The notes under the pieces are model-generated. The model did not search any database. It saw only the letters and a program-made list of their open reading frames with translations, and was not told the DNA's origin. The position numbers were made by a program, and so were the translations under genes. 64,000 bases of DNA from Stella humosa (GTDB taxonomy: Bacteria > Pseudomonadota > Alphaproteobacteria > ATCC43930 > Allostellaceae). The stretch covers positions 4,756,001 through 4,820,000 of the forward strand of contig NZ_AP019700.1 in assembly GCF_006738645.1 (NCBI RefSeq). Reading direction: 5' to 3'. Shown piece by piece: positions 22,775 through 44,312 of this stretch; position 1 is the first letter of the stretch, and each line of letters starts with the position of its first letter.

Positions 22775-22830
22775 GGTCTCGGATCCCCTCCAGCCCGTTG
22801 GATCGTGCAGGAAGATAGGCTGCGCCCGAC

Positions 22831-24422: not shown

Positions 24423-24433
24423 GGCCGGCGCCT

Positions 24434-25456: not shown

Positions 25457-25549
25457 GTTCTCCCCCCGTTCGCGGCGGGCGCACGCTATCGGTCGCGACC
25501 GACCACCGTCAACGCCGGCCGGGCGTTGCGTTCGCCGCCGCCGCCGCTT

Positions 25550-26269
25550 ATGGGGTTGGGACACCTTCGCAGAGACGAGGGATTTCGCACGGCCTGCACG
25601 GGCCGACGGCCCACCAGGCGGGAGCAGCTTCTGTCCCTTCTCACCCTCTTCTTCCTCAAGGGGATCATCGCCGGCGTGATCATCGCCGCCCCGGTCGGGC
25701 CGGTGGGCGTGCTGTGCGTGCGCCGCACGATCTTCGAAGGGCCGGTCTACGGCTTCGTCTCCGGGCTTGGGGCGGCGGTGGCCGATGCGCTGTTCGGCAT
25801 CGTGGCCGCCTTCGGGCTGACCGTCATCTCGGACTTCCTGATCGGCCACCAGGGGTGGCTGAAGGGCGTGGGCGCCGCCTTCCTGCTGTTCATCGGCGGC
25901 CGCGCGCTGCTGTGGGAGCGCGACTCCGCGCCCGCCCCCATCAGCGGCGACAGCCTGCTGGGCGCCTTCGCCTCCACCTTCGCCCTGACGGTCACCAACC
26001 CCATCACCATCCTGGCCTTCGCCGGGGTCTTCGCGGCCGCCGGCCTGTCCGGCGAGGAAGCGACCTGGGGCCGCGCCGGCATGCTGGTGGCCGGCGTCTT
26101 CGCGGGCTCGCTCGCCTGGTGGTTCCTCCTCTGCGCGGTGGCCGGCGGCGTCCGCCACCTGGTGCGCGAGGTCCATCTGGTATGGGTGTCGCGCAGCTCG
26201 GGCGCGATCCTGGTCGCGTTCGCCTTTTTCCTGATCCTCACCATGACGCCCTGGTCGCCGATCGACTGA
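25550..26269 (+). CDS. LysE/RhtB-family amino-acid exporter
   Basis: The last ~212 residues are a typical LysE-family protein with six membrane segments: APVGPVGVLCVRRTIFEGPV (family signature), ADALFGIVAAFGLTVIS, FALTVTNPITILAFAGVFAA and SSGAILVAFAFFLILT. The nearest canonical start is the ATG at 25550, which gives a 27-residue basic leader unlike the family. A CTG at 25631 with GGAG six bases upstream gives the usual ~212 residues. The true start is therefore uncertain. Divergent from the binding-protein gene at 25456. Confidence 0.86.
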   Translation: MGLGHLRRDEGFRTACTGRRPTRREQLLSLLTLFFLKGIIAGVIIAAPVGPVGVLCVRRTIFEGPVYGFVSGLGAAVADALFGIVAAFGLTVISDFLIGHQGWLKGVGAAFLLFIGGRALLWERDSAPAPISGDSLLGAFASTFALTVTNPITILAFAGVFAAAGLSGEEATWGRAGMLVAGVFAGSLAWWFLLCAVAGGVRHLVREVHLVWVSRSSGAILVAFAFFLILTMTPWSPID

Positions 26270-26303
26270 CCGGGGCCGCCCCCGTCGGCGTCACGGAGCC
26301 TTG

Positions 26304-28700
26304 ATGACGGTACATCCCCCGGTGCCCCGGCACCCCATTCTTGCCCGCCCGCTGCTGCCCCTGCTGTGGTCCATCCTGGCCCTGTGGGCGGCGCTGGCCG
26401 TCGCCATGCCGGCCGCCGCCCAGATCCCCCCCTCCATGCTGGGGATCGGCAACAAGCCCAAGGCCGAGGCGGCGGCGCCGGCCCAGCCCGCCGCCCTGCC
26501 CTCGGCCGAGGAGGTCGAGCAGCTTGCCAAGACGCTGGAGGACCCGGCCCGCCGCGCGGACCTGATCCGCCAGTTGCGCCTGCTGTCGCAGGCCGGCCGG
26601 CCGGGTGCTGCCGCCCCCGACGCCCCGGCACCGGCGCCGGCCGCGATCGACCCCGGGTCGCCGGGCGAGGTGGTGCTGGGCCAGGTGGCGGCCGCGGCCG
26701 ATGCGGTCGTCCGCGCGATCGTCGATGCCGGCAGCCTGATGGCGAACCTGCCGGCGCTGGCCGACTGGCTGGTCGACCAGTTCGACGACGCCGAGAGCCG
26801 CACCCGCTGGATCGGCATCTTCTCCGAGCTGGCCGTCGTCTTCGGCGCGGCCATCCTGGTCGAGCTGATCGCCTGGGGCGCGCTGCGCCGGCCGCGCCAG
26901 GCACTGGCCGCCCGCACGGTGCGCGGCGGCCGCCTGCGCCGCGTGCCCTACGCCTTTCTGCGGCTGGTCATCGAGCTGGCCCCGGTGGCGGCCTTCGCCG
27001 GCATCGCCTATGGCACGCTGGCCCTGCTGCCGCCGGACTTCGCCGCCCGCTTCATCAGCCTGACGGTCGTGCGCGCCGTGGTGCTGGCCGGCCTGGTGGT
27101 GGCGATCGCGCGCGCCGTCCTGATGCCCGATGCGCCCGGACTGCGCATCCTGCCGCTGGGCGAGGAGTCGGCCCATTATGTGATGATCTGGATCCGGCGC
27201 TTCGTGGCGCTCGGCATCTACGGCTTCGCCATCCTCGACATCACCTTCCTGATCGGCCTGCCCGTTTCCATCTACCAACTCTTCGAGCGCGTGCTGGGGC
27301 TGGTGCTGGCGGGGCTGGCCGTGGTCTTCGTGCTGCAGAACCGTATCGCCGTCGCCGACTGGCTGCGCGAGGAGCCGAAAAGCCACCTTGGCCAGCCACG
27401 CGTGGCCTCGGCCCTCTGCGGCTGGCTGGCAGAGACCTGGCACCTCATGGCGATCATCTATGTGGTGCTGCTGGCGATCGTCTGGCTGTTCCAGATCCCG
27501 AGCGGCTTCACCTTCGTGCTGCGCGCATCGGCCCTGTCGATCCTGATCATCGCGCTGGCGGCGCTGGCCCAGGCGGGCGCGCGCCGGTTGATCCGCCGGG
27601 TCTTCGCCGTGTCGCCGAGGCTGGCGCGCGACTTCCCCAACATCGAGGCGCGCGCCAACCGCTACATGGCGATCGTCGGCATCGTCGCCTCCACCGCGAT
27701 CACGGCGATGGCGGTCGTCCTGCTGCTGCAAGCCTGGGGGCTGCGGTCGCTCGACTGGCTGTCCTCGTCCTTCGGCCAGCGGCTGACGGGCGGGCTGGTG
27801 TCGATCGTCGTGGTCGGCCTGCTGGCGCTCTTCGTCTGGGAGGTGGTCGACCGCGTCATCGACCGCACCCTGCAGCGCCTGTCGCGCCAGGCGCCGACGG
27901 CCGGCAGTGCGGTGCGCCTGCGCACCTTCCTGCCGCTGATCCGCAACGTCGCCATGGTGGTGCTGGCCACCATCTTCATCCTGGTCGCGCTGTCCGAGAT
28001 CGGCGTCAACATCGCGCCCCTGCTGGCCGGCGCCAGCATCATCGGCATCGCGGTCGCCTTCGGCGCCAACGCGCTCGTGAAGGACGTCATCACCGGCCTC
28101 TTCATCCTGATCGAGGGCACCATCAACATCGGCGACGTGGTGGAGGTGGACGGCCGGGCCGGCGCCGTCGAGGGCCTCAGCATCCGCACCATGCGCCTGC
28201 GCGACGCCGCGGGGGCGGTCCATACGGTCCCGTTCTCGAACGTCACCTCGGTCAAGAACATGACGCGGGACTTCAGCTTCGTGGTGATCGAGGCCAACGT
28301 CAGCTACGATACGGACCTGGACATGGCGATGAAGGTGCTGGCGGACGTGGAAGAAGGCATGCGTGCCGACCCCGCTTTCGCCGGCATGATCTCGGCGCCG
28401 CTTGCGATGGACGGCGTCGACCGCTTCGCCGACAGCGCCATCATCATCCGCGCCCGCATCCGCACGCCACCCGGCAAGCAGTGGCCCGTCTCCCGGGAGT
28501 TCAATCGCCGCATGAAGCAGGCATTCGACCGCGCCGGCATTGAGATTCCCTTCCCCCACCAAGTCGTGGTGGGCGAGGGCATTCGTGTGGCCGAGGCGAC
28601 AACGCAACCCCCGGCCGTCATGCCGCCGCCCCAGGTGTCGCCGCCTGCACAGGTGTCGCCGCCTGCACAGGTATCGCCGCCAGCATCGGCCGGCGCATGA
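26304..28700 (+). CDS. MscS-family mechanosensitive channel, large multi-TM form
   Basis: 798 residues from the ATG at 26304 (GGAG five bases upstream; a TTG precedes it). A signal peptide ending near MPAAAQ is followed by a periplasmic Ala/Pro-rich region, about ten membrane segments, and the MscS core at ~residues 550-760. The pore helix and cytoplasmic beta domain are ASIIGIAVAFGANALVKDVI, GLFILIEGTINIGDVVEVDG and AVHTVPFSNVTSVKNMTRDF. The C-terminal tail is a Pro/Ala/Gln repeat (listed separately). It would gate on membrane tension or osmotic shock. Its stop overlaps the next ATG (ATGA). Confidence 0.93.
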   Translation: MTVHPPVPRHPILARPLLPLLWSILALWAALAVAMPAAAQIPPSMLGIGNKPKAEAAAPAQPAALPSAEEVEQLAKTLEDPARRADLIRQLRLLSQAGRPGAAAPDAPAPAPAAIDPGSPGEVVLGQVAAAADAVVRAIVDAGSLMANLPALADWLVDQFDDAESRTRWIGIFSELAVVFGAAILVELIAWGALRRPRQALAARTVRGGRLRRVPYAFLRLVIELAPVAAFAGIAYGTLALLPPDFAARFISLTVVRAVVLAGLVVAIARAVLMPDAPGLRILPLGEESAHYVMIWIRRFVALGIYGFAILDITFLIGLPVSIYQLFERVLGLVLAGLAVVFVLQNRIAVADWLREEPKSHLGQPRVASALCGWLAETWHLMAIIYVVLLAIVWLFQIPSGFTFVLRASALSILIIALAALAQAGARRLIRRVFAVSPRLARDFPNIEARANRYMAIVGIVASTAITAMAVVLLLQAWGLRSLDWLSSSFGQRLTGGLVSIVVVGLLALFVWEVVDRVIDRTLQRLSRQAPTAGSAVRLRTFLPLIRNVAMVVLATIFILVALSEIGVNIAPLLAGASIIGIAVAFGANALVKDVITGLFILIEGTINIGDVVEVDGRAGAVEGLSIRTMRLRDAAGAVHTVPFSNVTSVKNMTRDFSFVVIEANVSYDTDLDMAMKVLADVEEGMRADPAFAGMISAPLAMDGVDRFADSAIIIRARIRTPPGKQWPVSREFNRRMKQAFDRAGIEIPFPHQVVVGEGIRVAEATTQPPAVMPPPQVSPPAQVSPPAQVSPPASAGA
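28632..28685 (+). repeat. Three 18-bp tandem repeats encoding the MscS-type protein tail
   Basis: Units of CAGGTGTCGCCGCCTGCA at 28632-28649 and 28650-28667, then a variant with two changes at 28668-28685. They encode three QVSPPA units at the C-terminus. In-frame (18 = 6 codons), so copy-number slippage would change tail length without breaking the gene. Confidence 0.9.
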
Positions 28701-29503
28701 CCGCCACCCCCGACATCGCGGCCTGGCGCCCCTATGCCGGGCGCAACCCGCGCGGGTTGTGGTCGCTCTACCGCAAGGAGGTGATGCGCTTCGTCAAGGT
28801 CGCCACCCAGACGGTGATGGCGCCCCTGGTGACGACGCTGCTGTTCCTGGCCGTGTTCGCCCTGGCGCTGGGCGGGGCCGACCGCATGGTGGGCGGCGTG
28901 CCCTATGTCCAGTTCCTGGCGCCGGGGCTGGTGATGATGGCGATCGTCCAGAACGGCTTCGCCAACACCTCGTCCTCGATCGTCATCGCCAAGGTGCAGG
29001 GCAACGTCGTCGACATGCTGATGCCGCCCTTGTCGCCGGCCGTGCTGACGGCGGGGTTCGCGCTGGCCGGCATGACGCGCGGGCTGGCGGTGGGCCTGGC
29101 CGTCGGCCTGGCGATGGCGATCTTCGTCGGCCTGCCGGTGGCCGACCCGTTCGCCATCGTCTTCCATGCCGCGGCAGGCGCGCTGATGCTGGCCCTGATC
29201 GGCATCGTGGCCGGCCTGTGGTCCGAGAAGTTCGACCATATCTCGGCCGTGACCAATTTCGTGGTGACGCCGCTGGCCTTCCTGTCCGGCACCTTCTACT
29301 CGGTCGAGCGGCTGCCGGCGGAATGGGCCTTCATCGCCCATCTCAACCCTTTCTTCTACATGATCGACGGTTTCCGGGCGGGCTTCATCGGCCATGCCGA
29401 CGGCAACCGGCTGGTCGGGTTCGCGGTCCTGATCACGGCCGACCTCGGGCTCTGGATTCTCTGCCATCGCCTGTTCCGGATCGGCTACAAGCTGAAGCCC
29501 TGA
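28697..29503 (+). CDS. ABC-2 type transporter permease without adjacent ATPase
   Basis: 268 residues with six membrane segments. The family motifs VMAPLVTTLLFLAVFALALG, FANTSSSIVIAKVQGNVVDM, PPLSPAVLTAGFALAGMTRG and PLAFLSGTFYSVERLPAEW identify the ABC-2 (YadH/NodJ-like) permease class. The gene overlaps the MscS stop by 4 bp and precedes ggt by 30 bp. Its ATPase partner, normally the adjacent upstream gene, is absent here; the upstream neighbour is instead the channel gene. Probable export function; substrate unknown. Confidence 0.9.
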   Translation: MTATPDIAAWRPYAGRNPRGLWSLYRKEVMRFVKVATQTVMAPLVTTLLFLAVFALALGGADRMVGGVPYVQFLAPGLVMMAIVQNGFANTSSSIVIAKVQGNVVDMLMPPLSPAVLTAGFALAGMTRGLAVGLAVGLAMAIFVGLPVADPFAIVFHAAAGALMLALIGIVAGLWSEKFDHISAVTNFVVTPLAFLSGTFYSVERLPAEWAFIAHLNPFFYMIDGFRAGFIGHADGNRLVGFAVLITADLGLWILCHRLFRIGYKLKP

Positions 29504-29533
29504 ACGCTGCAGCCTGCCCATCCGGAGTAGTCC

Positions 29534-31222
29534 ATGACGCCACGCCGCCGGCCCGCCATCGCCGCCCTTCTGCTGGCCCTGCTGCTGCCGGCGGTGCCGG
29601 AAGCCGCCGAGCGGGCGGTCGTCACCTCGGCCCACCCGATCGCCTCGGCCGCGGGCAAGGCGATCCTGGACCAGGGCGGCAACGCGATCGACGCGGCGGT
29701 CGCCGTCCAGATGGCGCTGTCGGTGGTGGAGCCGCACGCGTCGGGCATCGGCGGCGGCGCCTTCCTGCTGCTGTGGGACCCCGCCCGCCCGGCGGTCGTG
29801 CGCGCCTTCGACGGCCTCGCCTCCCAGCCGGCGCGCGCCGCCATCAGCATATCCTACGAGGCCGACGGGTCCCGCCTGCCCTACGAACGGGTCGAGAATT
29901 CGGGCCGGTCGGTCGGCGTGCCCGGTGCCGTCGCGATGCTGGCCGAGCTGCACGCCAAGGAGGGCCGCCTGCCCTGGTCCGCCCTGTTCGCGCCCGCGAT
30001 CCGGGCGGCCGAGGACGGCTTTCCCATGCCGCCCTACCTGCACCATGCGCTGGTGGTGGTGGGGGCCAAGCTGAAGGACCCGGCCCTGCGGGCGGAATGG
30101 ATGGACGCCGACGGCCGGCCGCGCCCGCTGGGTACCATCGTGCGCAACCAGGCCCAGGCGGCAAGCCTGCGGCTGATCGCCGAAAAGGGCGCCGACGCGT
30201 TGCGACAGGGCGAGTTGGCCCGCGCCATCATCGCCGCCGTCACCAGCGACGAGGCCGCCCCGGGCTGGATGACGGAGGCCGACCTGGCCGCCTATCGCCC
30301 GCGCGAGCGCGATGCCTTGTGCGCCCCGGCGCTGGGCCATCGCATCTGCTCCATGCCGCCGCCGTCCTATGGCGGGGTCGTCACCCTGCAGATCCTGGCG
30401 ATGGCGGGCCAGCACGGCATCGCCAGCCTGCCGCCGGACAGCCCGGCCGCCGCCCACCTCTTCCTGGAGGCCAGCCGCCTGGCCTATGCCGATCGCCTGC
30501 TCCATATCGGCGACCCGGATTTCGAGCAGGTGCCGACCGCGGGCCTGGTCGACCCGATCTATCTGCGCCAGCGGGCCAGCCAGATCCGTGCCGACGCCGT
30601 CATCCCGAAGGTGACGGCCGGCGACCCGCCGGGACGGCGGGCCGACATCGTGCCGTCGGAGCCGGGCAGCGAGCCGACCACGAGCCACCTGGCTATCGTC
30701 GATCGCGATGGCCGCATCGTGTCGATGACCACCACCATCAATCTCTATTTCGGCTCGAAGATCGCCGCCGGCGGCTTCTTCCTGAACAACGCCCTGACCA
30801 ACTTCTCGGCCCAGATGCGCGACGGGCAGCTCGCGGTCAACCGCATGATGCCGGGCAAGCGTCCCTACACCTCGATGGCGCCGACGATCGCCTTCGACGC
30901 CGCGGGAAAGCCCGTGCTGGCCGTGGGTGCCGCCGGCGGCGTGCGCATCCCCAGCTACGTCGCCCAGGCCGAGCTGGGCGTGCTGGCCTGGGGCATGGAC
31001 ATCGGCGCTGCCATGGCCCAGCCGCACTGGCACAATGCCAACAGCCAGAGCGAGGTCGAGAGCGAGACCCCGGCGGTCGCCTTGCAGGATGCCCTGCGGG
31101 CGCTGGGCCACCAGCCGAAGGTGCAGGCGATGCAGAGCGGCCTGGCCGGCATCGCCCGCACACCCGCGGGCTGGGTGGGCGCGGCCGATGCCCGGCGCGA
31201 CGGCGCCGCCGTCGGCGACTGA
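29534..31222 (+). CDS. ggt: Gamma-glutamyltransferase
   Basis: 562 residues. GGAG six bases before the ATG. Signal peptide PAIAALLLALLLPAVPEAAE; N-terminal GGT motifs ASAAGKAILDQGGNAIDAAV and EPHASGIGGGAFLLLWD. The autoprocessing/catalytic threonine is Thr383 in EPTTSHLAIVDRDG, and the C-terminal substrate loop is AAGGVRIPSYVAQAEL. It is a periplasmic Ntn-hydrolase that cleaves glutathione and other gamma-glutamyl compounds. Oddity: its last ~31 codons are duplicated 5.9 kb downstream, beyond a restriction-modification module, so this 3' end may have arrived with the module while keeping the frame intact. Confidence 0.94.
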   Translation: MTPRRRPAIAALLLALLLPAVPEAAERAVVTSAHPIASAAGKAILDQGGNAIDAAVAVQMALSVVEPHASGIGGGAFLLLWDPARPAVVRAFDGLASQPARAAISISYEADGSRLPYERVENSGRSVGVPGAVAMLAELHAKEGRLPWSALFAPAIRAAEDGFPMPPYLHHALVVVGAKLKDPALRAEWMDADGRPRPLGTIVRNQAQAASLRLIAEKGADALRQGELARAIIAAVTSDEAAPGWMTEADLAAYRPRERDALCAPALGHRICSMPPPSYGGVVTLQILAMAGQHGIASLPPDSPAAAHLFLEASRLAYADRLLHIGDPDFEQVPTAGLVDPIYLRQRASQIRADAVIPKVTAGDPPGRRADIVPSEPGSEPTTSHLAIVDRDGRIVSMTTTINLYFGSKIAAGGFFLNNALTNFSAQMRDGQLAVNRMMPGKRPYTSMAPTIAFDAAGKPVLAVGAAGGVRIPSYVAQAELGVLAWGMDIGAAMAQPHWHNANSQSEVESETPAVALQDALRALGHQPKVQAMQSGLAGIARTPAGWVGAADARRDGAAVGD

Positions 31223-31240
31223 CGGCGGCGCGGGCGCCCG
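31129..31240 (+). repeat. Direct repeat, copy 1 (3' end of ggt)
   Basis: 112 bp covering the last 31 codons of ggt, its stop and 18 bp beyond. It matches 37049-37160 base for base at an offset of 5920 with 9 differences and no gaps (103/112). The differences lie at 31139, 31141, 31162, 31177, 31180, 31183, 31189, 31190 and 31214. It marks the left edge of the restriction-modification island. Confidence 0.95.
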
Positions 31241-31400
31241 CCGTAGCCTATCCGCCAGGGGGGGTGCCAAAGTGGCGAACACGCCGACCAAGGGCGATTG
31301 CAGGTTGTGTGCCCACGGGTAAGCCGGCGTATGCTCGCCATCCATAGGAGGGCCGCTGCTGCTTGGGTGGCGCCAAGTCTGAGCCATTGAGGGGGCCGTA

Positions 31401-33512
31401 TTGCTGGTCGGGGAAATCCGCAGTCAGATCGACAGCATCTGGAATGACTTCTGGTCGGGCGGCGTTTCGAACCCGCTGAGCGTGATCGAGCAGATCACCT
31501 ACCTGCTGTTCATCAAGCGCCTGGACGAGTTGCAATCCGTCGAGGAGCACAAGGCCAACACCCTGAGGGCGCCACTGGAGCGGCGGATATTCCCCGAGGG
31601 CGCTGATCCACGCGGCGAGCCCTACGAAAACCTGCGCTGGTCACGGTTCCGGGACAAGGAGCCGCGCGAGATGTTCCGGATCGTCGAGGAGCACGTCTTC
31701 CCCTTCATCCGTGAGCGGGTCGCCGCCGAGGGCTCGCTGGCCAGGAGCATGCGCGACGCGCGCTTCCAGATCCCGACGCCGGCCCTCCTGGCCAAGGCGG
31801 TCGACAAGCTCGACCATGTGCGCATGGGCGACCGCGACACCAAGGGCGATGTCTACGAGTACATGCTGGGCAAGATCGCCAGCGCCGGCCAGAATGGACA
31901 GTTCCGCACGCCCCGCCACATCATCGCGCTGATGACGGCGCTGATGGCGCCGACGCCCAAGGACGTGATCTGCGACCCGGCGGCGGGAACCTGCGGCTTC
32001 CTGGTGGCGGCCAGCGAATACCTGCGCGAGCACCACGCCGGGCTATTCCGCGACGACGCCCAGCGCCGGCACTTCCACGAGCAGGCATTTCACGGCTTCG
32101 ACTTCGACCCGACCATGCTGCGCATCGGGGCGATGAACATGATCCTGCACGGGGTGGAGAACCCCGTGATCGAGTATCGCGACAGCCTGTCGGAGGACAT
32201 CGCCGGCGAGAAGGAGCGCTACAGCCTCATCCTCGCCAACCCGCCGTTCGCGGGCTCGCTGGACTACGAGCAGACCGCCCGCGACCTGCAGCAGGTGGTG
32301 AAGACCAAGAAGACCGAGCTGCTGTTCCTGGCCCTCTTCCTGCGCCTGCTGCGCACCGGCGGCCGGGCGGCGGTGATCGTGCCCGACGGGGTGCTGTTCG
32401 GCTCGTCCAAGGCGCACAAGGAGCTGCGCCGCATGCTGGTCGAGGATCACAAGCTGGACGCGGTGATCTCGCTGCCGTCCGGTGTGTTCCGGCCCTATGC
32501 GGGTGTGTCGACGGCGATCCTCTGCTTCACAAAGACGGGCGTCGGCGGAACGGACCACGTCTGGTTCTATGACATGAAGGCAGACGGCCTGTCGCTGGAC
32601 GACAAGCGGCAGGAGCTGCTGCCGGCGGAGAAGCTGGGCCCGACGCCGGATGCCGACCTGACGGAGGCCGAGCACGAGAAGAACAACTTGCCCGACATCC
32701 TCAAGCGTTGGATGGAGCGGGATGGCGCCGAACGCGAGCGGCCACGAACGGCGCAGAGCTTTTGTGTACCTAAGAAAGATATCGTGCACGATGGTGCCTA
32801 CGATCTTTCTATAAATCGCTACCGACAAACATTGCGTGTTGTGGTCGGCGACATTGGCCCAGCAGAAATAGTTGAGACTCTGAAATCTCTGAGAGATGAG
32901 ATCGCAGAAGAATTCAAAAATATTGAACGCACCGCAACGGTTGCACCTTCCCGCAGAGGCTGGAGGAGACTGCGCTTGGATGAGGTAACGGAATGTTTAG
33001 ACCGACTCCGAAAGCCAGTTAAGGAAAGCGATCGGATACCCGGCACCGTCCCCTACTATGGCGCCAATGGTCAACAAGGCTGGATAGATAGGCCGATATT
33101 TAATGAAGATCTTGTTCTTGTAGCAGAAGATGGTGGTTTTTTTGATCAACCATGGCGCGGCGTGTCATACAAAATATCCGGACCTTCGTGGGTTAATAAT
33201 CACGCACACATACTCCGCCCGATAAGATCAATAATAGATGTTAATTATCTTCACCATGCTTTGCGTAATTTTGATTTCACGAAATATATATCAGGGACAA
33301 CAAGATCAAAATTAACTCAAGCACAATTAAATTCCACTATCATACTTGTTCCGCCAATTGAAGAACAAGTTATAATTGCGAATGAGTTCGATAGAATTGA
33401 TGCCCTAAAAATGAAGCTTAAATCTTCGCTTCTTGTTGCAAACACATTAGATGCAGCAATTCAACGACAATTCTTCGACTATAACGATGATTTAGCGTCA
33501 CCAAAAACATAG
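31401..33512 (+). CDS. Type I-like N6-adenine methylase fused to a half-specificity (single TRD) domain
   Basis: 703 residues. TTG start with GAGGGGG five bases upstream. HsdM N-terminal helical domain (NPLSVIEQITYLLFIKRLDE), then the methylase core with SAM motif around Asp192 (DPAAGTCGFL) and catalytic NPPF at residues 280-283. From about residue 518 (RRGWRRLRLDEV) an HsdS-type target-recognition domain begins (GTVPYYGANGQQGWIDRPIF, NNHAHILRP) with the conserved helix segment PPIEEQVIIANEFDRIDAL, and the protein ends. Only one TRD and one spacer helix are present, so bipartite recognition would need dimerisation. Bases ~32760-33512 are A+T-rich with A/T-ending codons, unlike the G+C-rich first two thirds. 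Confidence 0.9.
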   Translation: MLVGEIRSQIDSIWNDFWSGGVSNPLSVIEQITYLLFIKRLDELQSVEEHKANTLRAPLERRIFPEGADPRGEPYENLRWSRFRDKEPREMFRIVEEHVFPFIRERVAAEGSLARSMRDARFQIPTPALLAKAVDKLDHVRMGDRDTKGDVYEYMLGKIASAGQNGQFRTPRHIIALMTALMAPTPKDVICDPAAGTCGFLVAASEYLREHHAGLFRDDAQRRHFHEQAFHGFDFDPTMLRIGAMNMILHGVENPVIEYRDSLSEDIAGEKERYSLILANPPFAGSLDYEQTARDLQQVVKTKKTELLFLALFLRLLRTGGRAAVIVPDGVLFGSSKAHKELRRMLVEDHKLDAVISLPSGVFRPYAGVSTAILCFTKTGVGGTDHVWFYDMKADGLSLDDKRQELLPAEKLGPTPDADLTEAEHEKNNLPDILKRWMERDGAERERPRTAQSFCVPKKDIVHDGAYDLSINRYRQTLRVVVGDIGPAEIVETLKSLRDEIAEEFKNIERTATVAPSRRGWRRLRLDEVTECLDRLRKPVKESDRIPGTVPYYGANGQQGWIDRPIFNEDLVLVAEDGGFFDQPWRGVSYKISGPSWVNNHAHILRPIRSIIDVNYLHHALRNFDFTKYISGTTRSKLTQAQLNSTIILVPPIEEQVIIANEFDRIDALKMKLKSSLLVANTLDAAIQRQFFDYNDDLASPKT

Positions 33513-33523
33513 AGTAATTGCCA

Positions 33524-36500
33524 ATGCCGCAGTTCTCCTTCCTCGCCGCCGAGTTTTCCGAGATTCACCGCCTTGCGGCGCTGGCGGAGGGGATGGCGCG
33601 GACGGATGCACGGGGGGCGTGCTTCTATGCGCGGCTGGCGCTGGAGACAATGGTCGGCTGGCTCTACAGGCATGAGCGCAGCCTGCGGCCGCCGTATGAG
33701 AAGACTTTGTCGGCGCTGATCCACGAGGCAACGTTCCGCAACCTGGTGGGTCCGGCGCTGCTCGCCAAGGCCAAGGTGGTCAAGGACCTGGGCAACAGGG
33801 CCGTTCACGAGGGTGGTCGCCCCGTGCCGCCCAGCGACGGGATCGCCGCGGTGCGGGAGTTGTTCCACCTGACCTATTGGCTGGCGCGCACCTATGCGCG
33901 CGGGGCGAAGCCGGCGGGCGCGATCGAATTCGTGGCCGACGCGCTGCCGGTCAACAAGGCGGTGGCGGTCGCCCGGCTCGACCAGTTGAATGCCGCGGCC
34001 CAGCGCTTCGTCGAGGCGGAGAAGGCGCGCGAGGCGGCGGAGGCGCGGCAACGCGCCAGCGAGGAGGACCGCGCCCGGCTGGAGGCCGAGATCGCGCGGC
34101 TGCAGGCCGAAGTGGCCGCCGCCAAGGCCGCCAACACGCAGGCGCCGGATACGCACGACTATGGCGAGGCGGCGACCCGCGACCTGTTCATCGACCTGTT
34201 GCTGCGCGAGGCCGGCTGGAGCTTCACCCGGCCCGGCCACGACACCGAGTATCGCGTCACCGGCATGCCCAACCAGCCGGGCGAGGGCTTCGTCGACTAT
34301 GTGCTGTGGGGCGACGACGGCCGGCCGCTGGCCATCGTCGAGGCCAAGCGCACCCGCAAGGACGGGCGCGCCGGCCAGCAGCAGGCCAAGCTCTATGCCG
34401 ACTGCCTGGAGGCGATGACCGGGCAGCGGCCGGTGATCTTCTGCTCCAACGGCTACGAGCACTGGATCTGGGACGACGGGCGCTACCCGCCCCGGCCAAT
34501 CCAGGGTTTCCTGACCAAGGACGAGTTGGAGTTGGCGATCCGCCGGCGCACGACCATGCAGCCGCTGGGTTCGGCCACGATCGACGGGACGATCGTCGAG
34601 CGCTACTACCAGACCCGTGCCATCCGCCGCGTGGCAGAGGCCTTCGAGAAGGACAAGGCCCGTCGCGCGCTGCTGGTCATGGCCACCGGCTCGGGCAAGA
34701 CGCGCGCGGTGATCGCGCTCTGCGACCTCCTGATGCGGGCGAACTGGGCACGTCGCATCCTGTTCCTGGCCGATCGCCAGGCGCTGGTGAACCAGGCCGT
34801 GGGTGCCTTCAGGAAATTCCTGCCGGACACATCGCCAGTCAACCTGCTGATGGACAGGCGGGCGACCGGCCGGGTCTATGTCTCGACCTATCCGACGATG
34901 ATGAACCTGATCGACAAGGCCGAGGGCGAGACCCGGCGCTTCGGCCCCGGCCACTTCGACCTGATCGTCATCGACGAGGCGCATCGCTCGATCTATCGCA
35001 AGTACGGCGCGATCTTCGACTATTTCGACAGCCTGCTGGTGGGCCTGACCGCCACGCCCAAGGACGAGGTGGATCGCGACACCTATCGCCTGTTCGACCT
35101 GCAGCGGGGCGTGCCGACCGACGCCTATGGCCTGGAGGAGGCGGTCAATGACGGCTTCCTGGTGCCGCCGCTCGCTGTCTCGGTGCCGTTGAAGTTCCAG
35201 CGCGGCGGCATCCGCTATGACGACCTCTCCGAGGACGAGAAGGAGCAGTGGGACGCCGTCGAATGGGACGACGACGGCAACGTGCCGGCCGCGATAGAGC
35301 CCACCGCCTTGAATACCTGGCTGTTCAACGCCGACACGGTGGACAAGGTGCTGGAGCACCTGATGACCCACGGCCAGCGGGTGGCCGACGGCGACCGGCT
35401 TGGCAAGACCATCATATTCGCGAAGAACCAGGACCACGCCCGCTTCATCGTCGCGCGGTTCGACAAGGCCTATCCGCACCACGCAGGCGCCTTCGCCAGG
35501 GTGATCATCTCGGCCGATTCCTATGCCCAGAGCCTGATCGACGACTTCAGCCAGCCAGCGAAGGCACCGCACATCGCCGTGTCGGTCGACATGCTGGACA
35601 CCGGCATCGACGTGCCCGAGGTGGTGAACCTGGTGTTCTTCAAGGTCGTGCGTTCGAAGACGAAGTTCTGGCAGATGCTGGGACGGGGCACGCGGCTTTG
35701 CCCCGACCTGTTCGGACCCGGCCGGCACAAGACGCATTTCACGGTGTTCGACTTCTGCCAGAACTTCGAGTTCTTCAACCAGAACCCGGAGGTGACCGAC
35801 GGCGCGATCGGGGATTCCCTTTCCAAGCGCCTGTTCGCCGCGCGGGTCGAATTGATCTGTGCCCTGGACGCGTTGCACCCGTCGGGCGACTTGCTGTTGA
35901 TCAAGGCTGTCCCCACCGAGGGCCCTGCTGGCGCAGGCCTGTCCGAGGACAAGGCAGCGTTCGAAAGTGGCGACAACGCCGCGTCGGCTTCTGCCAGGCT
36001 GCGCGATGAGGTGGCCAGGATACTGCGCGAAGAGATCGCCGGCATGAGCGTGGACAATTTTCTGGTCCGCGCGCATCGACGCCATGTGGAGAAGTTCGGC
36101 GATCCGGCAGCCTGGGTGCGCCTCAGCCTCGACGACCAAGCCGAGCTGGTCAACGAGGTGGCCGGCCTGCCCAGCAGCGTCGCCGACGACGACCTGGCGG
36201 CCAAGCAGTTCGACGCCCTCATCCTGCGTACCCAGCTCGCGGTGCTGAGGGCGGAGAGCGCGTTCGGCGGCCTGAGAAAGAAGGTGGTCACGCTGGCCAC
36301 GCTGCTGGAGGAGATGTCGAACATTCCCGCGGTAGCGCGCGAGCTTGTCCTGATCCAGGAAGTCCAGGGCGACGACTTCTGGCAGGACGTCACAGCGCCG
36401 ATGCTGGAGACGGTGCGCCGACGCCTGCGCGCGCTGATCAAGCTGATCGAGGTGAAGGGGCGAGAGATCGTCTACACCGACTTCGAGGATGCGATTGGCC

Positions 36501-37006
36501 CAGGCACCGCGGTCGAATTGCAAGGCGTGGGCGCCGGCACCGACGTGATTCGCTTCCGACTGAAGGCGCGCCACTTCCTGCGAGCGAACGAGGACCACAT
36601 CGCGGTGCAGAAGCTCCGGCGCAACGAGCCGCTGACCCCTACGGACTTGGCCGAATTGGAACGCATCTTCGTAGAGGCGCAAGTCGCAGCACCGGAAGAC
36701 CTGGAACGCGTGCAAGCGGACGGCGGCCTGGGGCTGTTCGTCCGGTCCCTGGTGGGGCTGGATCGTGAAGCCGCCAAGGCTGTCTTCGGCGCCTTCACGG
36801 CCCAGCGGCGGTTGTCGGCCAATCAGATCGAGTTCCTGAACATGATCATCGATCACCTGACGGAGCGAGGCTCGATGGACCCTCGCCTGCTCTACGAGAG
36901 CCCATTCACGGACCTGGACCCGATGGGCCTCGCGGGAATGTTCGGCGACGACGCCGGCGCCGTCGTGGATATCCTCGCCGAAGTCCGCCGCCGGACAGCC
37001 GCCTAG
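33524..37006 (+). CDS. hsdR: Type I restriction endonuclease R subunit (HsdR-like) with N-terminal DUF4145-type domain
   Basis: 1160 residues from the ATG at 33524 (TTG at 33518 possible), 11 bp after the methylase stop. Order: DUF4145-like helical domain (LALETMVGWLYRHE, KVVKDLGNRAVHEGG) and a coiled-coil at ~160-205. The PD-(D/E)xK nuclease follows with Asp258 (FVDYVLWG) and Glu273/Lys275 (IVEAKRT). The SF2 translocase has Walker A MATGSGKTR (Lys392), DEAH at 484-487 and motif VI QMLGRGTRL; an EcoEI-type C-terminal domain ends it. All catalytic residues are present, so an active ATP-dependent restriction subunit is expected. Base composition is G+C-rich like the host. Confidence 0.92.
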   Translation: MPQFSFLAAEFSEIHRLAALAEGMARTDARGACFYARLALETMVGWLYRHERSLRPPYEKTLSALIHEATFRNLVGPALLAKAKVVKDLGNRAVHEGGRPVPPSDGIAAVRELFHLTYWLARTYARGAKPAGAIEFVADALPVNKAVAVARLDQLNAAAQRFVEAEKAREAAEARQRASEEDRARLEAEIARLQAEVAAAKAANTQAPDTHDYGEAATRDLFIDLLLREAGWSFTRPGHDTEYRVTGMPNQPGEGFVDYVLWGDDGRPLAIVEAKRTRKDGRAGQQQAKLYADCLEAMTGQRPVIFCSNGYEHWIWDDGRYPPRPIQGFLTKDELELAIRRRTTMQPLGSATIDGTIVERYYQTRAIRRVAEAFEKDKARRALLVMATGSGKTRAVIALCDLLMRANWARRILFLADRQALVNQAVGAFRKFLPDTSPVNLLMDRRATGRVYVSTYPTMMNLIDKAEGETRRFGPGHFDLIVIDEAHRSIYRKYGAIFDYFDSLLVGLTATPKDEVDRDTYRLFDLQRGVPTDAYGLEEAVNDGFLVPPLAVSVPLKFQRGGIRYDDLSEDEKEQWDAVEWDDDGNVPAAIEPTALNTWLFNADTVDKVLEHLMTHGQRVADGDRLGKTIIFAKNQDHARFIVARFDKAYPHHAGAFARVIISADSYAQSLIDDFSQPAKAPHIAVSVDMLDTGIDVPEVVNLVFFKVVRSKTKFWQMLGRGTRLCPDLFGPGRHKTHFTVFDFCQNFEFFNQNPEVTDGAIGDSLSKRLFAARVELICALDALHPSGDLLLIKAVPTEGPAGAGLSEDKAAFESGDNAASASARLRDEVARILREEIAGMSVDNFLVRAHRRHVEKFGDPAAWVRLSLDDQAELVNEVAGLPSSVADDDLAAKQFDALILRTQLAVLRAESAFGGLRKKVVTLATLLEEMSNIPAVARELVLIQEVQGDDFWQDVTAPMLETVRRRLRALIKLIEVKGREIVYTDFEDAIGPGTAVELQGVGAGTDVIRFRLKARHFLRANEDHIAVQKLRRNEPLTPTDLAELERIFVEAQVAAPEDLERVQADGGLGLFVRSLVGLDREAAKAVFGAFTAQRRLSANQIEFLNMIIDHLTERGSMDPRLLYESPFTDLDPMGLAGMFGDDAGAVVDILAEVRRRTAA

Positions 37007-37048
37007 GTCGAGCGGCCGCCGCCTTGTGGCACAAGGTGGGGTAGAGAA

Positions 37049-37160
37049 GATGCAGAGCCGGCTGGCCGGCATCGCCCGCACGCCCGCGGGCTGGGTCGGT
37101 GCCGCCGACCCCCGGCGCGACGGCGCCGCCGTCAGCGACTGACGGCGGCGCGGGCGCCCG
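37049..37160 (+). pseudogene. Direct repeat, copy 2: severed 3' end of ggt
   Basis: Encodes MQSRLAGIARTPAGWVGAAD and the rest of the ggt C-terminus up to TGA, plus 18 bp shared beyond the stop. Relative to copy 1 the nine differences give three amino-acid changes (Gly to Arg, Ala to Pro, Gly to Ser) and five silent codon changes. It has no upstream ggt sequence. Because the next native gene (37161) begins immediately after it, this copy probably represents the original chromosomal ggt end. Confidence 0.85.
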
Positions 37161-37751
37161 CTACAGGACGCCCGTCAGGATCGCAATGCCGGCCAGGGTG
37201 GCGACGCCACCGGCGGTCCGCACCATCACGCCACCGGCCGTGCCGCGCGCCACCAGCCAGCCGAGGCCGAGCCCGGCCGCGTGCAGGGCCGCCGTCGCCA
37301 GCAGGAAGCCGGCGGCATAGCCGAGGCCGCCGGCATTGGCCGGCATCTCCGCCCCGTGGGCGTAGCCGTGGAAGATGGCGAAGAAACCGACCAGGCCCAT
37401 GGCAACCGCCATCGGCGCGCGCACGCCGAACGCCACGGCAGCGCCGAGTACGACGATCGAGAGCGCGATGCCGGCCTCGACCAGCGGCAGCGTGAAGCCT
37501 GCCATGCCGGCCAAGCCACCCACCGCCATCACGCCGACGAAGCTGGCCGGCAGCAGCAGGCGAGCTCGCCCGCCCATCTGGAAGGCCAGGACGCCGACCA
37601 GCACCATCGCCAGGACATGGTCGAGCCCGCCGGCGGGATGGGCCATGCCGTGCGCGAAGCCGCTGGCATGGTCGACGCCGGTATGGGCCATGGCGACGGC
37701 GGGCAGCAGCCCGGCGACTGCTGCGGCAAGCGCGGCGGAAACGATCCTCAT
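37161..37751 (-). CDS. HupE/UreJ-family membrane protein
   Basis: 196 residues. Signal peptide VSAALAAAVAGLLPAVAMAH, then the HupE/UreJ hallmark HTGVDHASGFAHGMAHPAGG (histidine-rich metal-site motif) and about five further membrane segments including GLVGFFAIFHGYAHGAEMPA. Members are nickel (or possibly cobalt) permeases usually found with hydrogenase or urease genes, but no such gene is in the window. It converges on the ggt relic with no spare bases between repeat end and stop codon. Confidence 0.9.
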   Translation of the reverse strand: MRIVSAALAAAVAGLLPAVAMAHTGVDHASGFAHGMAHPAGGLDHVLAMVLVGVLAFQMGGRARLLLPASFVGVMAVGGLAGMAGFTLPLVEAGIALSIVVLGAAVAFGVRAPMAVAMGLVGFFAIFHGYAHGAEMPANAGGLGYAAGFLLATAALHAAGLGLGWLVARGTAGGVMVRTAGGVATLAGIAILTGVL

Positions 37752-37842
37752 ATCTCTACCCCCGGGGGTTGGTTCGCGAGCCCGGCTGCTGGCCGGGCAT
37801 CTGCCGCCGATTGAATCCCTCGGCGCGGACGACGGCAAGCCT

Positions 37843-38205
37843 TCAGCCGGCGATCGCGCTGCAATGCGCTGCGGCCACGCGCCACAGGCCGCCGTCGCGG
37901 CACCACAGCCGGCTGTAGCGGAAGCCCCCGCCGAAGGGCGTGTCGTCCCAGCTTCCGGCCAGGTCGGCCCGCACCACGACCAGCACGGCATCGGCGGCCG
38001 GGCGCACCAGCACCTCGGAGAGTTCCAGGCGCGACAGGCGCAGCAGGCCGGACTGGTGCGCCTCCAGGTCCATCGCCTTGGTCAGGACGCGGCCGCCCTG
38101 GTCCACGAACACGAGGTCGTCCATCAGCAGGCCGTCCAGCGCCGCCACGTCGCCGGCCAGCATGGCCGCCCGCAGCCGCCGTTCCGCATCCTCGATCGCC
38201 GTCAT
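37843..38205 (-). CDS. Small NTF2-like/SnoaL-like protein
   Basis: 120 residues. Cone-shaped alpha+beta NTF2 fold suggested by the opening helices AIEDAERRLRAAMLAGDVAA, LDGLLMDDLVFVDQGGRVL and the closing strands FRYSRLWCRDGGLWRVAAAH. Such proteins (DUF4440/SnoaL-like) serve as small hydrolases, isomerases or ligand binders. The ATG overlaps the stop of the GMC oxidoreductase gene (ATGA), so it is the last gene of that operon and may act on the same substrate. No specific function can be assigned. Confidence 0.82.
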   Translation of the reverse strand: MTAIEDAERRLRAAMLAGDVAALDGLLMDDLVFVDQGGRVLTKAMDLEAHQSGLLRLSRLELSEVLVRPAADAVLVVVRADLAGSWDDTPFGGGFRYSRLWCRDGGLWRVAAAHCSAIAG

Positions 38206-39806
38206 GCCGCCTCGCCGCGTATCAGGGCCGCCCCGCGCTCGCCGATCATCAGCGAGGCCGCATTGGTGTTGGCCGAGGTCACCGTCGGCATGACCGAGGC
38301 GTCGACCACGCGCAGCCCGTCGACGCCATGGACGCGCAAGGCGGGGTCGACCACCGCGCCCGGGTCGGTGCCCATGCGGCAGGTGCCGACGCAATGGAAG
38401 ACGGTGCCGCCGGCCGTCCGCACGAACTCGAAGATCTCGTCGTCCGTCTGCGCCGCCGGCCCCGGCAGCACCTCGTCGTCCCACAGGTCGCGGAAGGCGG
38501 GCTGGGCGTGGATCTCGCGCAGCATGCGCACGCCGGCCACGATGACGCGGCGGTCATGCGGGTCGGAGAAATATTCGGGCGCGATGCGCGGCTGCTCGCG
38601 CGGGTCGGTGGAGCGGATGGCGACCGTGCCGCGCGAGCGCGGGTGGCACTGCCAGACCGACGAGGTGAAGCCCGAATAGCGGTGCAGCGGCGTGCCCGGC
38701 CGGTCGACCGACAGCGGCATGACGTTGAACTGCACGTCGGGCCGGCCGCCCTCGGCCCACCGCGTGCAGGCAGCACCGCCGACCTGCCCCGCCCCCACGG
38801 TCAGCGGGCCGGCATTGCGGAAGAGCCAGTCGAACCCCATCCGGGCCAGTTGCACCGGGCTGCGCACGGCGTCGTTCAGCGAGATCGGCTGGCGCAGGCG
38901 GACGATCGTGCGCGCCTGGTAGTGGTCCTGCAGGTTGGCGCCGACGCCGGGCAGGTCGGCCAGCACCGGGATGCCATGCCCGCGCAGCAAGTCGGCCGGG
39001 CCGATGCCGGATAGCTGGAGAAGCTGGGGGGACTGCAGGGCGCCCGCCGACAGGATCACCTCGCCCTCGGCCCGGGCCGACCGGACCGTGCCGCCGTCCA
39101 GCCATTCGACGCCGACCGCGCGGCCACCCTCGACCAGCACGCGCCGGGCGAGCGCGCCGGTGACGATCGTCAGGTTGGCCCGGTCGCGGACAGGAGCCAG
39201 GAAGGCGGCCGACGCGCTGGCCCGCCAGCCGTCGCGCACGCTGAGCTGGTAGCGGCCGACCCCGTGGGTGGTCTCGCCGTTGAAATCCGGGTTGAAGGGC
39301 AGCCCCTGCTGCTGGGCCGCCGCCAGCCAGGCGTCGCAGGCCGGGTTGTGGTTGCGCAGGGGCGAGACGGTCATCTCGCCATGGCCGCCGCGATACTGGT
39401 CGGGCGGTCCCTGCCAGCGCTCCAGCCGGCGGAAATGCGGCAACACGTCGCGATAGGACCAGCCGGTGGCGCCAGCGGCCGCCCAGTCGTCGAAATCCGC
39501 GTGCTGGCCGCGAATGAAGATCAGCCCGTTGATCGAGCTGGAGCCCCCCAGGATGCGGCCGCGCGGCCAGACGATGGCGCGCCCGCCCGAGCCCTCGGAC
39601 GGCTCGGTCGCGAACAGGCGCGAGAAGCGCTCGTCATAGATCGTGCGGAAATAGCCGACCGGCAGGCGCAGCCAGAAATTGCGGTCGGCCCCGCCCGCCT
39701 CCAGCAGCAGCACGCGGCAGGCGGGGTCGGCCGACAGCCGGTTGGCGAGCACCGAGCCCGCCGAACCGCCGCCGACCACGACATAGTCGAAGACCGGAAG
39801 GGCCAA
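38202..39806 (-). CDS. GMC-family FAD-dependent oxidoreductase (choline dehydrogenase-like)
   Basis: 534 residues. A TTG start is assigned because it begins 4 bp after the binding-protein stop and directly yields the FAD-binding DYVVVGGGSAGSVLANRLSA; no ATG fits. GMC signatures: GRILGGSSSINGLIFIRGQH, VILSAGALQSPQLLQLSGIG and the C-terminal active-site region FHCVGTCRMGTDPG..SANTNAAS with its catalytic His/Asn pair. The enzyme oxidises an alcohol or polyol using FAD in the cytosol. Operon context with an ABC importer suggests it starts catabolism of the imported compound. Confidence 0.92.
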   Translation of the reverse strand: MALPVFDYVVVGGGSAGSVLANRLSADPACRVLLLEAGGADRNFWLRLPVGYFRTIYDERFSRLFATEPSEGSGGRAIVWPRGRILGGSSSINGLIFIRGQHADFDDWAAAGATGWSYRDVLPHFRRLERWQGPPDQYRGGHGEMTVSPLRNHNPACDAWLAAAQQQGLPFNPDFNGETTHGVGRYQLSVRDGWRASASAAFLAPVRDRANLTIVTGALARRVLVEGGRAVGVEWLDGGTVRSARAEGEVILSAGALQSPQLLQLSGIGPADLLRGHGIPVLADLPGVGANLQDHYQARTIVRLRQPISLNDAVRSPVQLARMGFDWLFRNAGPLTVGAGQVGGAACTRWAEGGRPDVQFNVMPLSVDRPGTPLHRYSGFTSSVWQCHPRSRGTVAIRSTDPREQPRIAPEYFSDPHDRRVIVAGVRMLREIHAQPAFRDLWDDEVLPGPAAQTDDEIFEFVRTAGGTVFHCVGTCRMGTDPGAVVDPALRVHGVDGLRVVDASVMPTVTSANTNAASLMIGERGAALIRGEAA

Positions 39807-39809
39807 GCG

Positions 39810-40826
39810 TCAGCCCTGGACGGTGTCGAGGAAGAGCTTGGGGTCGAAATATTGCGCGGCCGGCACCGGATTGGCGATCTTGGCCGCCTCCACATAGAAA
39901 TCCGTCACCTGCTGCAGCCACTTCGTCACCGAGCCGTCCGCATAGAGCTTCCGCCACTCCGCCGTCGGGAACACCTTCTGGGCGGCGAACTGCTCCTTGA
40001 TGTCGGCGATCGGCACCTGGGGATAGTGGTTCTTCTGCAGCACCTCGAGCGCCTCGTCCGTGCGGCCGACCAGCATGTCGTTGCCGGCCGCCCAGGCGCG
40101 CACGACCCGGGCCAGCACTTCGCGGTTCTTGGCATGGTAGTCGTTGGCCGCCGCCCAGCCCGAGACGATGGCGGCCTTGGGGTAGTAGGCCGAGGCATCG
40201 ACCAGCTTCTTGGCGCCCGGCACCTTGTCGCGCACGGTCACGTTGAAGGGGACCCACAAGGCGACGGCCGGCACGGCGCCGGCGATGAAGGACGTCACCG
40301 CCTCGGCCATGCGCTGGTTCAGGATCTCGACGTCGCCCGGGCCGATGCCGTTGGCACGCAGGGCGGTGTCGAGGAAGACGTGGGCCGTCGTGCCCGTGGT
40401 GGTCGCGATGCGCTTGCCCTTCAAGTCGGCGAAGCTGCGGATGCCCTGGTCCTCGCGCACCCAGAGCTGGGCGGTGGCGAACTCCACGCAGTTGGCCAGG
40501 AACATGCGGCCCTGGCCGCGCGCCGGGAAGTTCGAGATGACGGCGCCGGTCGACAGCATGTCGAGGCTGCCGCCAACCATCGCCTGGAACAGCTCCAGCC
40601 CGGTGGTGAAGGGTTTGAACTCGGGCTCCAGCCCGTTCCGGCCCCAGGCATCGAGATGCTGGGCCAGCCACATCTGGCCGTCGACCGCCAGCGTGTGCAG
40701 GTAGCCGATGCGGATCCTGGTCTTCGCCTGGGCGAGTGCCGGCATGGTCAGCGCGGGCATGCCGAGCGCTGCCAGCCCGGCCGTGGCGGCGGTGCCGGCG
40801 AGCAGCCGGCGGCGGGTGGTCTGCAT
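39810..40826 (-). CDS. ABC transporter substrate-binding protein (NMT1/SsuA-like), Tat-type signal
   Basis: 338 residues from the ATG at 40826 (GGGAGGA eight bases upstream). The N-terminus TTRRRLLAGTAATAGLAALG has a twin-Arg-like signal. Periplasmic NMT1-type domain: IGYLHTLAVDGQMWLAQHLD, ELFQAMVGGSLDMLSTGAVI, DLKGKRIATTTGTTAHVFLD and ILNQRMAEAVTSFIAG. It lies 26 bp after the ATPase gene and 4 bp before the GMC gene. The ligand is unknown; the gene context suggests a compound oxidised by a GMC enzyme. Confidence 0.92.
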   Translation of the reverse strand: MQTTRRRLLAGTAATAGLAALGMPALTMPALAQAKTRIRIGYLHTLAVDGQMWLAQHLDAWGRNGLEPEFKPFTTGLELFQAMVGGSLDMLSTGAVISNFPARGQGRMFLANCVEFATAQLWVREDQGIRSFADLKGKRIATTTGTTAHVFLDTALRANGIGPGDVEILNQRMAEAVTSFIAGAVPAVALWVPFNVTVRDKVPGAKKLVDASAYYPKAAIVSGWAAANDYHAKNREVLARVVRAWAAGNDMLVGRTDEALEVLQKNHYPQVPIADIKEQFAAQKVFPTAEWRKLYADGSVTKWLQQVTDFYVEAAKIANPVPAAQYFDPKLFLDTVQG

Positions 40827-40852
40827 GGTCTGGTCCTCCCTTGCTTGTTGTT

Positions 40853-42414: not shown

Positions 42415-42420
42415 CCTATA

Positions 42421-42467
42421 GTTGGAACGTTCTCTCCCTGCCCGAAACGTACGCAAGTTGGGATGTT
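42421..42467. promoter_or_regulatory. Direct repeat between divergent GntR and ABC genes, candidate operator
   Basis: GTTGGAACGTT at 42421-42431 and GTTGGGATGTT at 42457-42467 match at 9 of 11 positions and lie 36 bp apart start to start, close to the permease start and at or within the 5' end of the regulator gene. Spacing and location fit binding by the adjacent GntR/UTRA regulator; HutC-type operators are more often palindromic, so this is tentative. Confidence 0.4.
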
Positions 42468-43216: not shown

Positions 43217-43249
43217 ACGCGGGGCCGCGGACCTGCTAGGATGGCGGCC

Positions 43250-43456: not shown

Positions 43457-43499
43457 ACTCGCCAGAATCAAGCCATCCATTTCCTGCCCCGAGGCCGCC

Positions 43500-43832: not shown

Positions 43833-43857
43833 GCGCCGCGGGCGAAGCAGGCGGCCG

Positions 43858-44307: not shown

Positions 44308-44312
44308 CAGCG

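What the first reader, a model, noticed from the sequence alone, without database searches (positions are those of the whole stretch)
31129..37160. R-M island bracketed by 112-bp direct copies of the ggt 3' end
The sequence shows the last 31 codons of ggt, its stop and 18 bp beyond at 31129-31240 and again at 37049-37160, with 9 mismatches and no gaps, flanking a two-gene restriction module. Five of the changed codons are synonymous, so the copies look like two alleles of a functional gene rather than a fresh duplication. Inference: the module was brought in by recombination at ggt carrying its own ggt tail, leaving the host tail stranded on the far side. Protein-coding 3' ends used this way without an integrase are little described.
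Basis: partly seen in the sequence, partly recalled or inferred. Interest (0 to 1): 0.85.

Follow-up and report, generated by a model that had tools for sequence, protein, structure and literature searches.

The report
Restriction island between two ggt tails
A small DNA-defence (restriction-modification) cassette has been inserted right behind an ordinary enzyme gene, so that a copy of that gene's tail now sits on each side of it; this is a clear, well-preserved case of a way of gene insertion that is already known, but with no recombinase gene found in it.

Summary
The last 30 codons, stop and 18 bp beyond ggt occur at 31129-31240 and again at 37049-37160 (112 bp, 9 mismatches, no gaps). They bracket 5,808 bp in which only a type I restriction-modification pair was found: HsdM fused to half an HsdS, and an EcoEI-type HsdR. 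Two same-genus genomes carry the empty site (ggt and hupE tail to tail, one tail, no module) in long synteny; a third has one tail and no hupE beside it. So this is an insertion that added a ggt tail.

The reading "two alleles, the module brought its own tail" is possible and slightly favoured, not proven. Most polarisable synonymous changes lie on the branch of the working copy, where selection alone would make them synonymous; the tail tree is unresolved (498 v 456 of 1000 bootstraps).

[quoted passage not shown] Related R-M cassettes sit the same way, with no integrase detected, behind tRNA genes in two Micromonospora and one acidobacterium; other elements at that Micromonospora tRNA-Arg do carry an integrase. 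Novelty: new member of a known kind.

The parts
29534..31222 (+). ggt, gamma-glutamyltransferase (562 aa), intact, ending in tail copy 1
   Evidence: Pfam PF01019 7.5e-131; same-genus orthologues 74/72/64% identical
31129..31240 (+). tail copy 1: end of ggt, stop and 18 bp (left boundary of the island)
31241..31400 (+). 160-bp leader of the module; 65.6% G+C; no other match at E <= 0.01 in its own genome, one 39-bp match (82%) in G003, none in G001 and G002
31401..33512 (+). HsdMS: type I DNA methyltransferase fused to one target-recognition domain (703 aa, TTG start as listed)
   Evidence: Pfam N6_Mtase, HsdM_N, one Methylase_S at 520-674; PADLOC MTase_I
32771..33512 (+). target-recognition part, 42.2% G+C against 66.1% in the hsdM part
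33518..37006 (+). HsdR, EcoEI-type restriction subunit (1162 aa)
   Evidence: Pfam ResIII, EcoEI_R_C, HSDR_N; PADLOC REase_I
37049..37160 (+). tail copy 2: stranded ggt end (right boundary of the island), abuts the hupE stop codon
37161..37754 (-). hupE/ureJ, convergent; the older neighbour of ggt
   Evidence: Pfam PF04955 2.4e-52; same arrangement in G003 and G001

Best explanation
A 5.8-kb type I R-M cassette integrated at the 3' end of ggt in the lineage of this genome, probably after its split from G001 and G003. It arrived joined to a ggt tail of its own. Integration fused the host's ggt body to that incoming tail (copy 1), so ggt stayed whole, and left the native tail with hupE on the far side (copy 2). 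In effect it works like an island that targets a gene's 3' end and carries a replacement end, as prophages do at icd, but no integrase was found in it: either a CIME-like element bounded by attL/attR-like blocks and moved by a recombinase in trans, or the same event done by homologous recombination through the tail. Shown: one added tail, empty sites in two relatives, open ggt frame, R-M genes as the only genes identified. Inferred: that copy 1 is the incoming one, and which recombination machinery acted.
For: Empty sites: G003 aligns to 21220-31231 and 37050-44311 with its single tail used twice (99 bp overlap); G001 likewise (116 bp); no HsdR relative in G001-G003. Copy 1 is the more changed copy and copy 2 keeps more ancestral states: 5 private changes v 1. 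Copy 2 differs from G001 at 7 of 81 nt, fewer than any of 528 overlapping windows of ggt between G000 and G001 (minimum 10). The block ends in 26 identical bases from the last codons over the stop. Analogues: of 73 HsdR relatives with usable flanks, 3 have bracketing repeats that are gene 3' ends, all tRNA (L096 tRNA-Met, L120 and L123 tRNA-Arg), with no integrase hit inside and none among the 6 proteins of L096 and L120 run through Pfam. At the Micromonospora tRNA-Arg site, 5 of 13 other stretches that I picked do encode an integrase. PMC10111431 (passages): identity blocks can reach about 250 bp at sites such as icd, and attP then carries a replacement end.
Against: No integrase hit in the island or in the whole window; none of the 3 same-genus genomes has an element at ggt; no integrase-bearing element at a ggt 3' end was found, though I did not search for one systematically; the 8 listed papers of one literature search (331 found) show no ggt site. 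The allele argument rests on 9 mismatches and the tree does not decide. Copy 2's two private changes are both non-synonymous, as decay after stranding would give under any model. The 18 bp behind the stop are identical in both copies and unlike G001 and G003, so both tails come from this species or a very near one. L095, a further relative bracketed by an 18-bp tRNA-Leu end, does have a weak integrase-like match beside the tRNA, so not all such cassettes lack one.
Confidence: 0.5

Rival explanations
1. Insertion with long target duplication: the R-M unit inserted into the ggt-hupE junction and duplicated about 112 bp of target in place; the copies were identical at first and drifted apart.
For: Fits the empty sites, the length ('in the order of 100 bp', PMC3874152), the R-M-only content and the lack of an integrase. 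Copy 2's private changes are both non-synonymous and copy 1's mostly synonymous, as expected if only copy 1 stayed under selection.
Against: A freely decaying copy 2 should have changed more than the constrained copy 1; it has changed less (1-2 v 5). P is 0.001-0.058 or 0.005-0.21, so the model is strained, not excluded.
Confidence: 0.33
2. In-place duplication first; later the ggt body with copy 1 was exchanged for an allele from another strain by ordinary homologous recombination.
For: Would also give a copy 1 richer in changes than copy 2.
Against: Needs two events; a break in ggt could not be tested for want of close strains.
Confidence: 0.12
3. No insertion: assembly artefact, chance repeat or dispersed repeat family.
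For: None found.
Against: Single-contig genome; copies that differ by 8% are hard to get from misassembly; genome-wide and class-sample searches give no family; empty sites in two relatives.
Confidence: 0.02

Closest known systems
Insertion with long target duplication of R-M genes (Nobusato et al. 2000; Furuta et al. 2010; Furuta not held, Nobusato not opened; known here only as cited in passages of PMC3031569, PMC1643837, PMC3874152)
   Same: R-M unit, direct repeats of about 100 bp of target, single copy in the empty relative, no recombinase found
   Different: [quoted passage not shown] whether published cases share this was not seen
Gene-3'-end integrative islands with replacement ends (prophages at icd; passages of PMC10111431)
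   Same: Target gene stays whole, second copy of its end on the far side, long identity block
   Different: No integrase found in the island; no integrase shown to use ggt. (That icd replacement ends differ mostly by synonymous changes is recalled, from no call.)
CIME, cis-mobilizable element (passages of PMC5704250, PMC3146451)
   Same: Direct repeats of a gene 3' end at both boundaries, no integration or transfer genes found
   Different: att function of the ggt tails not shown; no partner element at ggt found
tRNA-bound R-M cassettes without detected integrase: L120, L123 (Micromonospora), L096 (Acidobacteria), found here
   Same: Related HsdR (57-58% identity), bracketed by a gene 3' end and its copy, no integrase hit
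   Different: tRNA genes instead of a protein gene; repeats 46-50 bp; separate HsdM and HsdS in L120 and L096; further genes inside L096

Membership tests
Insertion with long target duplication (R-M) | Related genome with the empty site and one copy of the repeat | tested here: met
   G003, G001
Insertion with long target duplication (R-M) | Long direct repeat of target (order of 100 bp) at both ends of an R-M unit | tested here: met
Insertion with long target duplication (R-M) | Both repeats derive from the same target in place | tested here: inconclusive
Integrase-type island at a gene 3' end | Integrase gene within the element | tested here: not met
   Only HsdMS and HsdR identified; tblastn with 21 and then 30 tyrosine-recombinase frames negative for the island and the whole window; serine integrases not tested
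Integrase-type island at a gene 3' end | Target gene whole, second copy of its end on the far side | tested here: met
CIME | attL/attR retained, no integration or transfer genes | tested here: inconclusive
   No such genes found; that the tails act as att sites not testable here
CIME | Mobilised with or by an element using the same att site | not testable with these tools
   No element at ggt in G001-G003; five tyrosine-recombinase matches elsewhere in the own genome, none within the window
Type I R-M system | HsdR with nuclease and helicase domains, HsdM, specificity domain | tested here: met
Type I R-M system | HsdS with two target-recognition domains | tested here: not met
   One Methylase_S domain only, fused to HsdM

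The most novel reading that the evidence does not exclude
EcoEI-type R-M cassettes form a recurrent class of integrase-less islands across phyla. They carry a host gene's 3' end (tRNA or, as here, a protein gene) as a homing arm and spread between related strains by recombination in that arm, restoring the gene each time, with any matching integrase or RecA supplied by the host or a neighbouring element.
Probability: 0.22. Interest if true: 0.6.

Novelty: new member of a known kind. Interest (0 to 1): 0.4.

Why it matters
It is a clean natural example, with empty sites, of a defence cassette that settled behind a housekeeping gene without a visible recombinase. The diverged tails make the open question (target duplicated in place, or tail imported with the cassette) testable with a handful of further strains, and the tRNA cases found alongside suggest that this R-M type uses gene 3' ends more than once.

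Tried and rejected
Repeat family or chance: rejected by the genome-wide and class-sample searches. Consensus scan: the one promoter-like and one terminator-like site found do not exceed the shuffles and neither is at a junction. The hairpin over the ggt stop is strong in copy 2 (z -2.62, 1 of 200 shuffles fold as well; minus strand z -1.97, 7 of 200) but ordinary in copy 1 (z -1.37, 23 of 200), and no T-run follows it. Module leader elsewhere in the genus: one 39-bp match only. Repeats around the modules of L068 and L127 are dispersed, several copies each, not att-like ends. L067's tRNA-Ser end copy lies on the same side as the tRNA and does not bracket the module. Plasmids: 38 of 72,556 records match HsdR at E <= 1e-100, all below 60% identity. 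No tRNA lies in the window.

Mended work: one search printed the wrong end of ggt for G003/G001 (minus-strand loci; redone); one search read the tail one base out of frame (redone; its body figures stand); one search chose some integrase frames loosely, so it was redone with 30 frames, with the same 5 of 13.

Papers: Furuta 2010 is not held; Nobusato 2000 was not opened. I saw passages only of PMC3031569, PMC1643837, PMC3874152, PMC10111431, PMC5704250, PMC3146451 and PMC12595487 (tmRNA islands with R-M genes that do carry an integrase); every other paper was seen as a listing row. A five-term search for islands without integrase gave 0 papers, a six-term one 57 papers of which 12 rows were shown; these do not show absence from print.
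Full report
OBSERVATION. The 112-bp pair is real and at the stated places: 9 mismatches, no gap, 5 synonymous and 3 non-synonymous codons. The block is one base, 30 codons, the stop and 18 bp; one further base (31241/37161) also matches, so BLAST reports 113 bp. The last 26 of the 112 bases are identical. Copy 2 abuts the hupE stop codon. In the 5.83-Mb genome no third long match was reported (40 of 505 first-look candidates scored); the next match is the 3' end of a ggt paralogue. In a sample of 385 class genomes the 112-mer matched 42 at E <= 1e-4, with two long matches only in the window's own genome.

CONTENT. Between the copies lie 5,808 bp (31241-37048) with HsdMS 31401-33512 and HsdR 33518-37006, both on the + strand (Pfam; PADLOC). 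HsdR has the EcoEI-type C-terminal domain. HsdM carries a single target-recognition domain at its C-terminus; no separate HsdS was seen between the tails. G+C is 66.1% in the hsdM part, 42.2% in the recognition part and 66.9% in hsdR, against 70.1% for the window. No integrase was found in the bracketed stretch or the window.

EMPTY SITE. In G003 and G001 (same genus; ggt proteins 74% and 72% identical), ggt and hupE stand tail to tail with 23 and 19 bp between the stops and one ggt tail. G003 matches 21220-31231 and 37050-44311 (81.1% and 82.6%), the two subject stretches overlapping by 99 bp; G001 matches 21098-31237 and 37046 onward, overlapping by 116 bp. No relative of HsdR is in G001, G002 or G003. 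G002 (64%) has one tail and neither hupE nor the DUF4440 gene behind it; the gene that lies at 38202-39806 in the window (an oxidoreductase by its look; not run against a library) follows directly. So ggt-hupE without module is the state in two relatives, and the module with one tail is best read as added; a precise loss of module and one tail in the relatives is possible but less simple.

WHICH TAIL IS NATIVE. Over the 81 alignable nucleotides, sites against G001 and G003 give: copy 1 private 5, copy 2 private 1, copy1+copy2 v G001+G003 1, copy2+G001 v copy1+G003 2, other 1, private to G001 4, private to G003 6, constant 61. The ninth mismatch (31214) lies beyond that stretch and is likely a copy 2 change, because G002 has a glycine codon there as copy 1 has. 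Copy 1's private changes are four synonymous (one of them, at 31189, shared with G002) and one P-to-A; P stands there in 16 of the 23 genuine tails among 29 homologue loci (two further pattern hits, L037 and L038, were spurious and four loci gave none). Copy 2's private changes are G-to-R and G-to-S, so copy 2 has begun to decay. Against free decay since an old duplication, copy 2 has few changes: P = 0.017, 0.0013, 0.058 or 0.011 by how two unpolarised sites are shared out (synonymous sites of copy 1 v all sites of copy 2), or 0.005 to 0.21 when non-coding and some non-synonymous sites of copy 1 are counted. The site numbers in these tests are rough estimates of mine. Copy 2 differs from G001 at 7 of 81 nt and 4 of 27 third positions, below every one of 528 overlapping windows of ggt (minima 10 and 5); binomial P 0.006 for the third positions, one of several comparisons. 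For scale, 2.1% of G000-G003 and 2.8% of G003-G001 windows reach 7 or fewer differences. Neighbour-joining on the tails does not decide: copy1+copy2 498, copy2+G001 456 of 1000. I take copy 1 as the likelier incomer, with modest weight.

RELATIVES OF THE MODULE. One scan of genome contigs gave 282 HsdR relatives, of which the best 80 were kept; best-segment identity up to 73% in a partial one and 69% in full-length ones. Looking for same-strand repeats (blastn, E <= 1e-3) between up to 9 kb before and 6 kb behind HsdR, 73 had usable flanks and 7 were too short; the end of HsdR was approximate for many. Five of 73 had any repeat. Two (L068, L127) are dispersed repeats. Three are gene 3' ends: L120 and L123 (Micromonospora; intact tRNA-Arg on one side, a 46- or 50-bp copy of its end on the other, 7.2-7.3 kb apart) and L096 (acidobacterium; tRNA-Met and a 47-bp copy of its end, 9.4 kb apart). 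A separate search with 18-base tRNA ends (26 of 80 loci have a tRNA) added L095, whose module lies between a tRNA-Leu and an 18-bp copy of its end 17.7 kb away; there a weak integrase-like match lies beside the tRNA. The L120 island holds HsdM, HsdS, HsdR and a 128-aa protein without Pfam match; L096 also holds a PhyH-like, a Fic and a 157-aa protein. L120, L123, L096 and the window gave no hit to 30 tyrosine-recombinase frames. In two Rhizobium loci (L118, L126) a tRNA-Gln end lies just behind HsdR. In 96 of 101 sampled genomes of the L120 genus the tRNA-Arg end occurs, by my count in 50 of 101 more than once (some may be second tRNA genes). I took 13 stretches with two or three copies, mostly short ones, so this is no random sample: 5 encode an integrase near one end, 8 gave no hit. 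Thus elements with and without a detected integrase share one site there, which is the pattern of CIMEs and the best analogue for the ggt island. No such partner was found at ggt.

MECHANISM. Shown: one added tail; ggt frame open to its end. Inferred: a circle or fragment carrying one ggt tail and the module recombined with the host tail. A site-specific recombinase in trans and homologous recombination give the same product. In-place target duplication is the main rival and cannot be excluded.

AGAINST THE LITERATURE. PMC3874152 (passages): some R-M systems insert with long, variable target duplications in the order of 100 bp; [quoted passage not shown] PMC3031569 (passages): genome comparison suggests this for all types of R-M systems. 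PMC1643837 (passages): in H. pylori, insertion with long target duplication is often tied to R-M genes. PMC10111431 (passages): the att identity block can reach about 250 bp inside genes such as icd, with attP carrying a replacement end. PMC5704250 and PMC3146451 (passages): CIMEs defined and exemplified, the latter with 15 ssrA islands without an integration module. The island is therefore a new member of a known kind; which of the two kinds remains open.

Noticed in passing
31401-33512: HsdM fused to a single target-recognition domain (half of an HsdS). HsdM was found in 62 of 80 relatives, and none of these had an open frame over 640 aa there; the domain is nearest to the first half of HsdS in L084 (53%) and L125 (50%).
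   Followed up: partly
32771-33512: Sharp drop to 42% G+C in the recognition domain, suggesting a separate, AT-rich origin of the specificity part.
   Followed up: no
31203-31231 and 37123-37151: A hairpin spans the ggt stop codon; the copy 2 change matching 31214 (G to A) turns a G-U pair of its predicted stem into A-U, so copy 2 may be kept as a two-way terminator between hsdR and hupE.
   Followed up: partly
L120 6796-14081, L123 6717-14086: Micromonospora tRNA-Arg(ACG) looks like an insertion hotspot: copies of the tRNA end 0.9 to 19 kb apart in the 13 stretches read, an integrase in 5 of them.
   Followed up: partly
L118 13423-14829: Rhizobium: a tRNA-Gln end just behind HsdR, then a 153-aa protein and a nucleotidyltransferase-like protein, then the tRNA-Gln gene; looks like two small islands in tandem.
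   Followed up: partly
L095 240-18077: Terriglobia MAG: R-M module within 17.7 kb between a tRNA-Leu and an 18-bp copy of its end, with a weak integrase-like match near the tRNA.
   Followed up: partly
L049 (G002:C333): In G002 hupE and the DUF4440 gene are missing behind ggt, so the ggt downstream junction has changed more than once in the genus.
   Followed up: no
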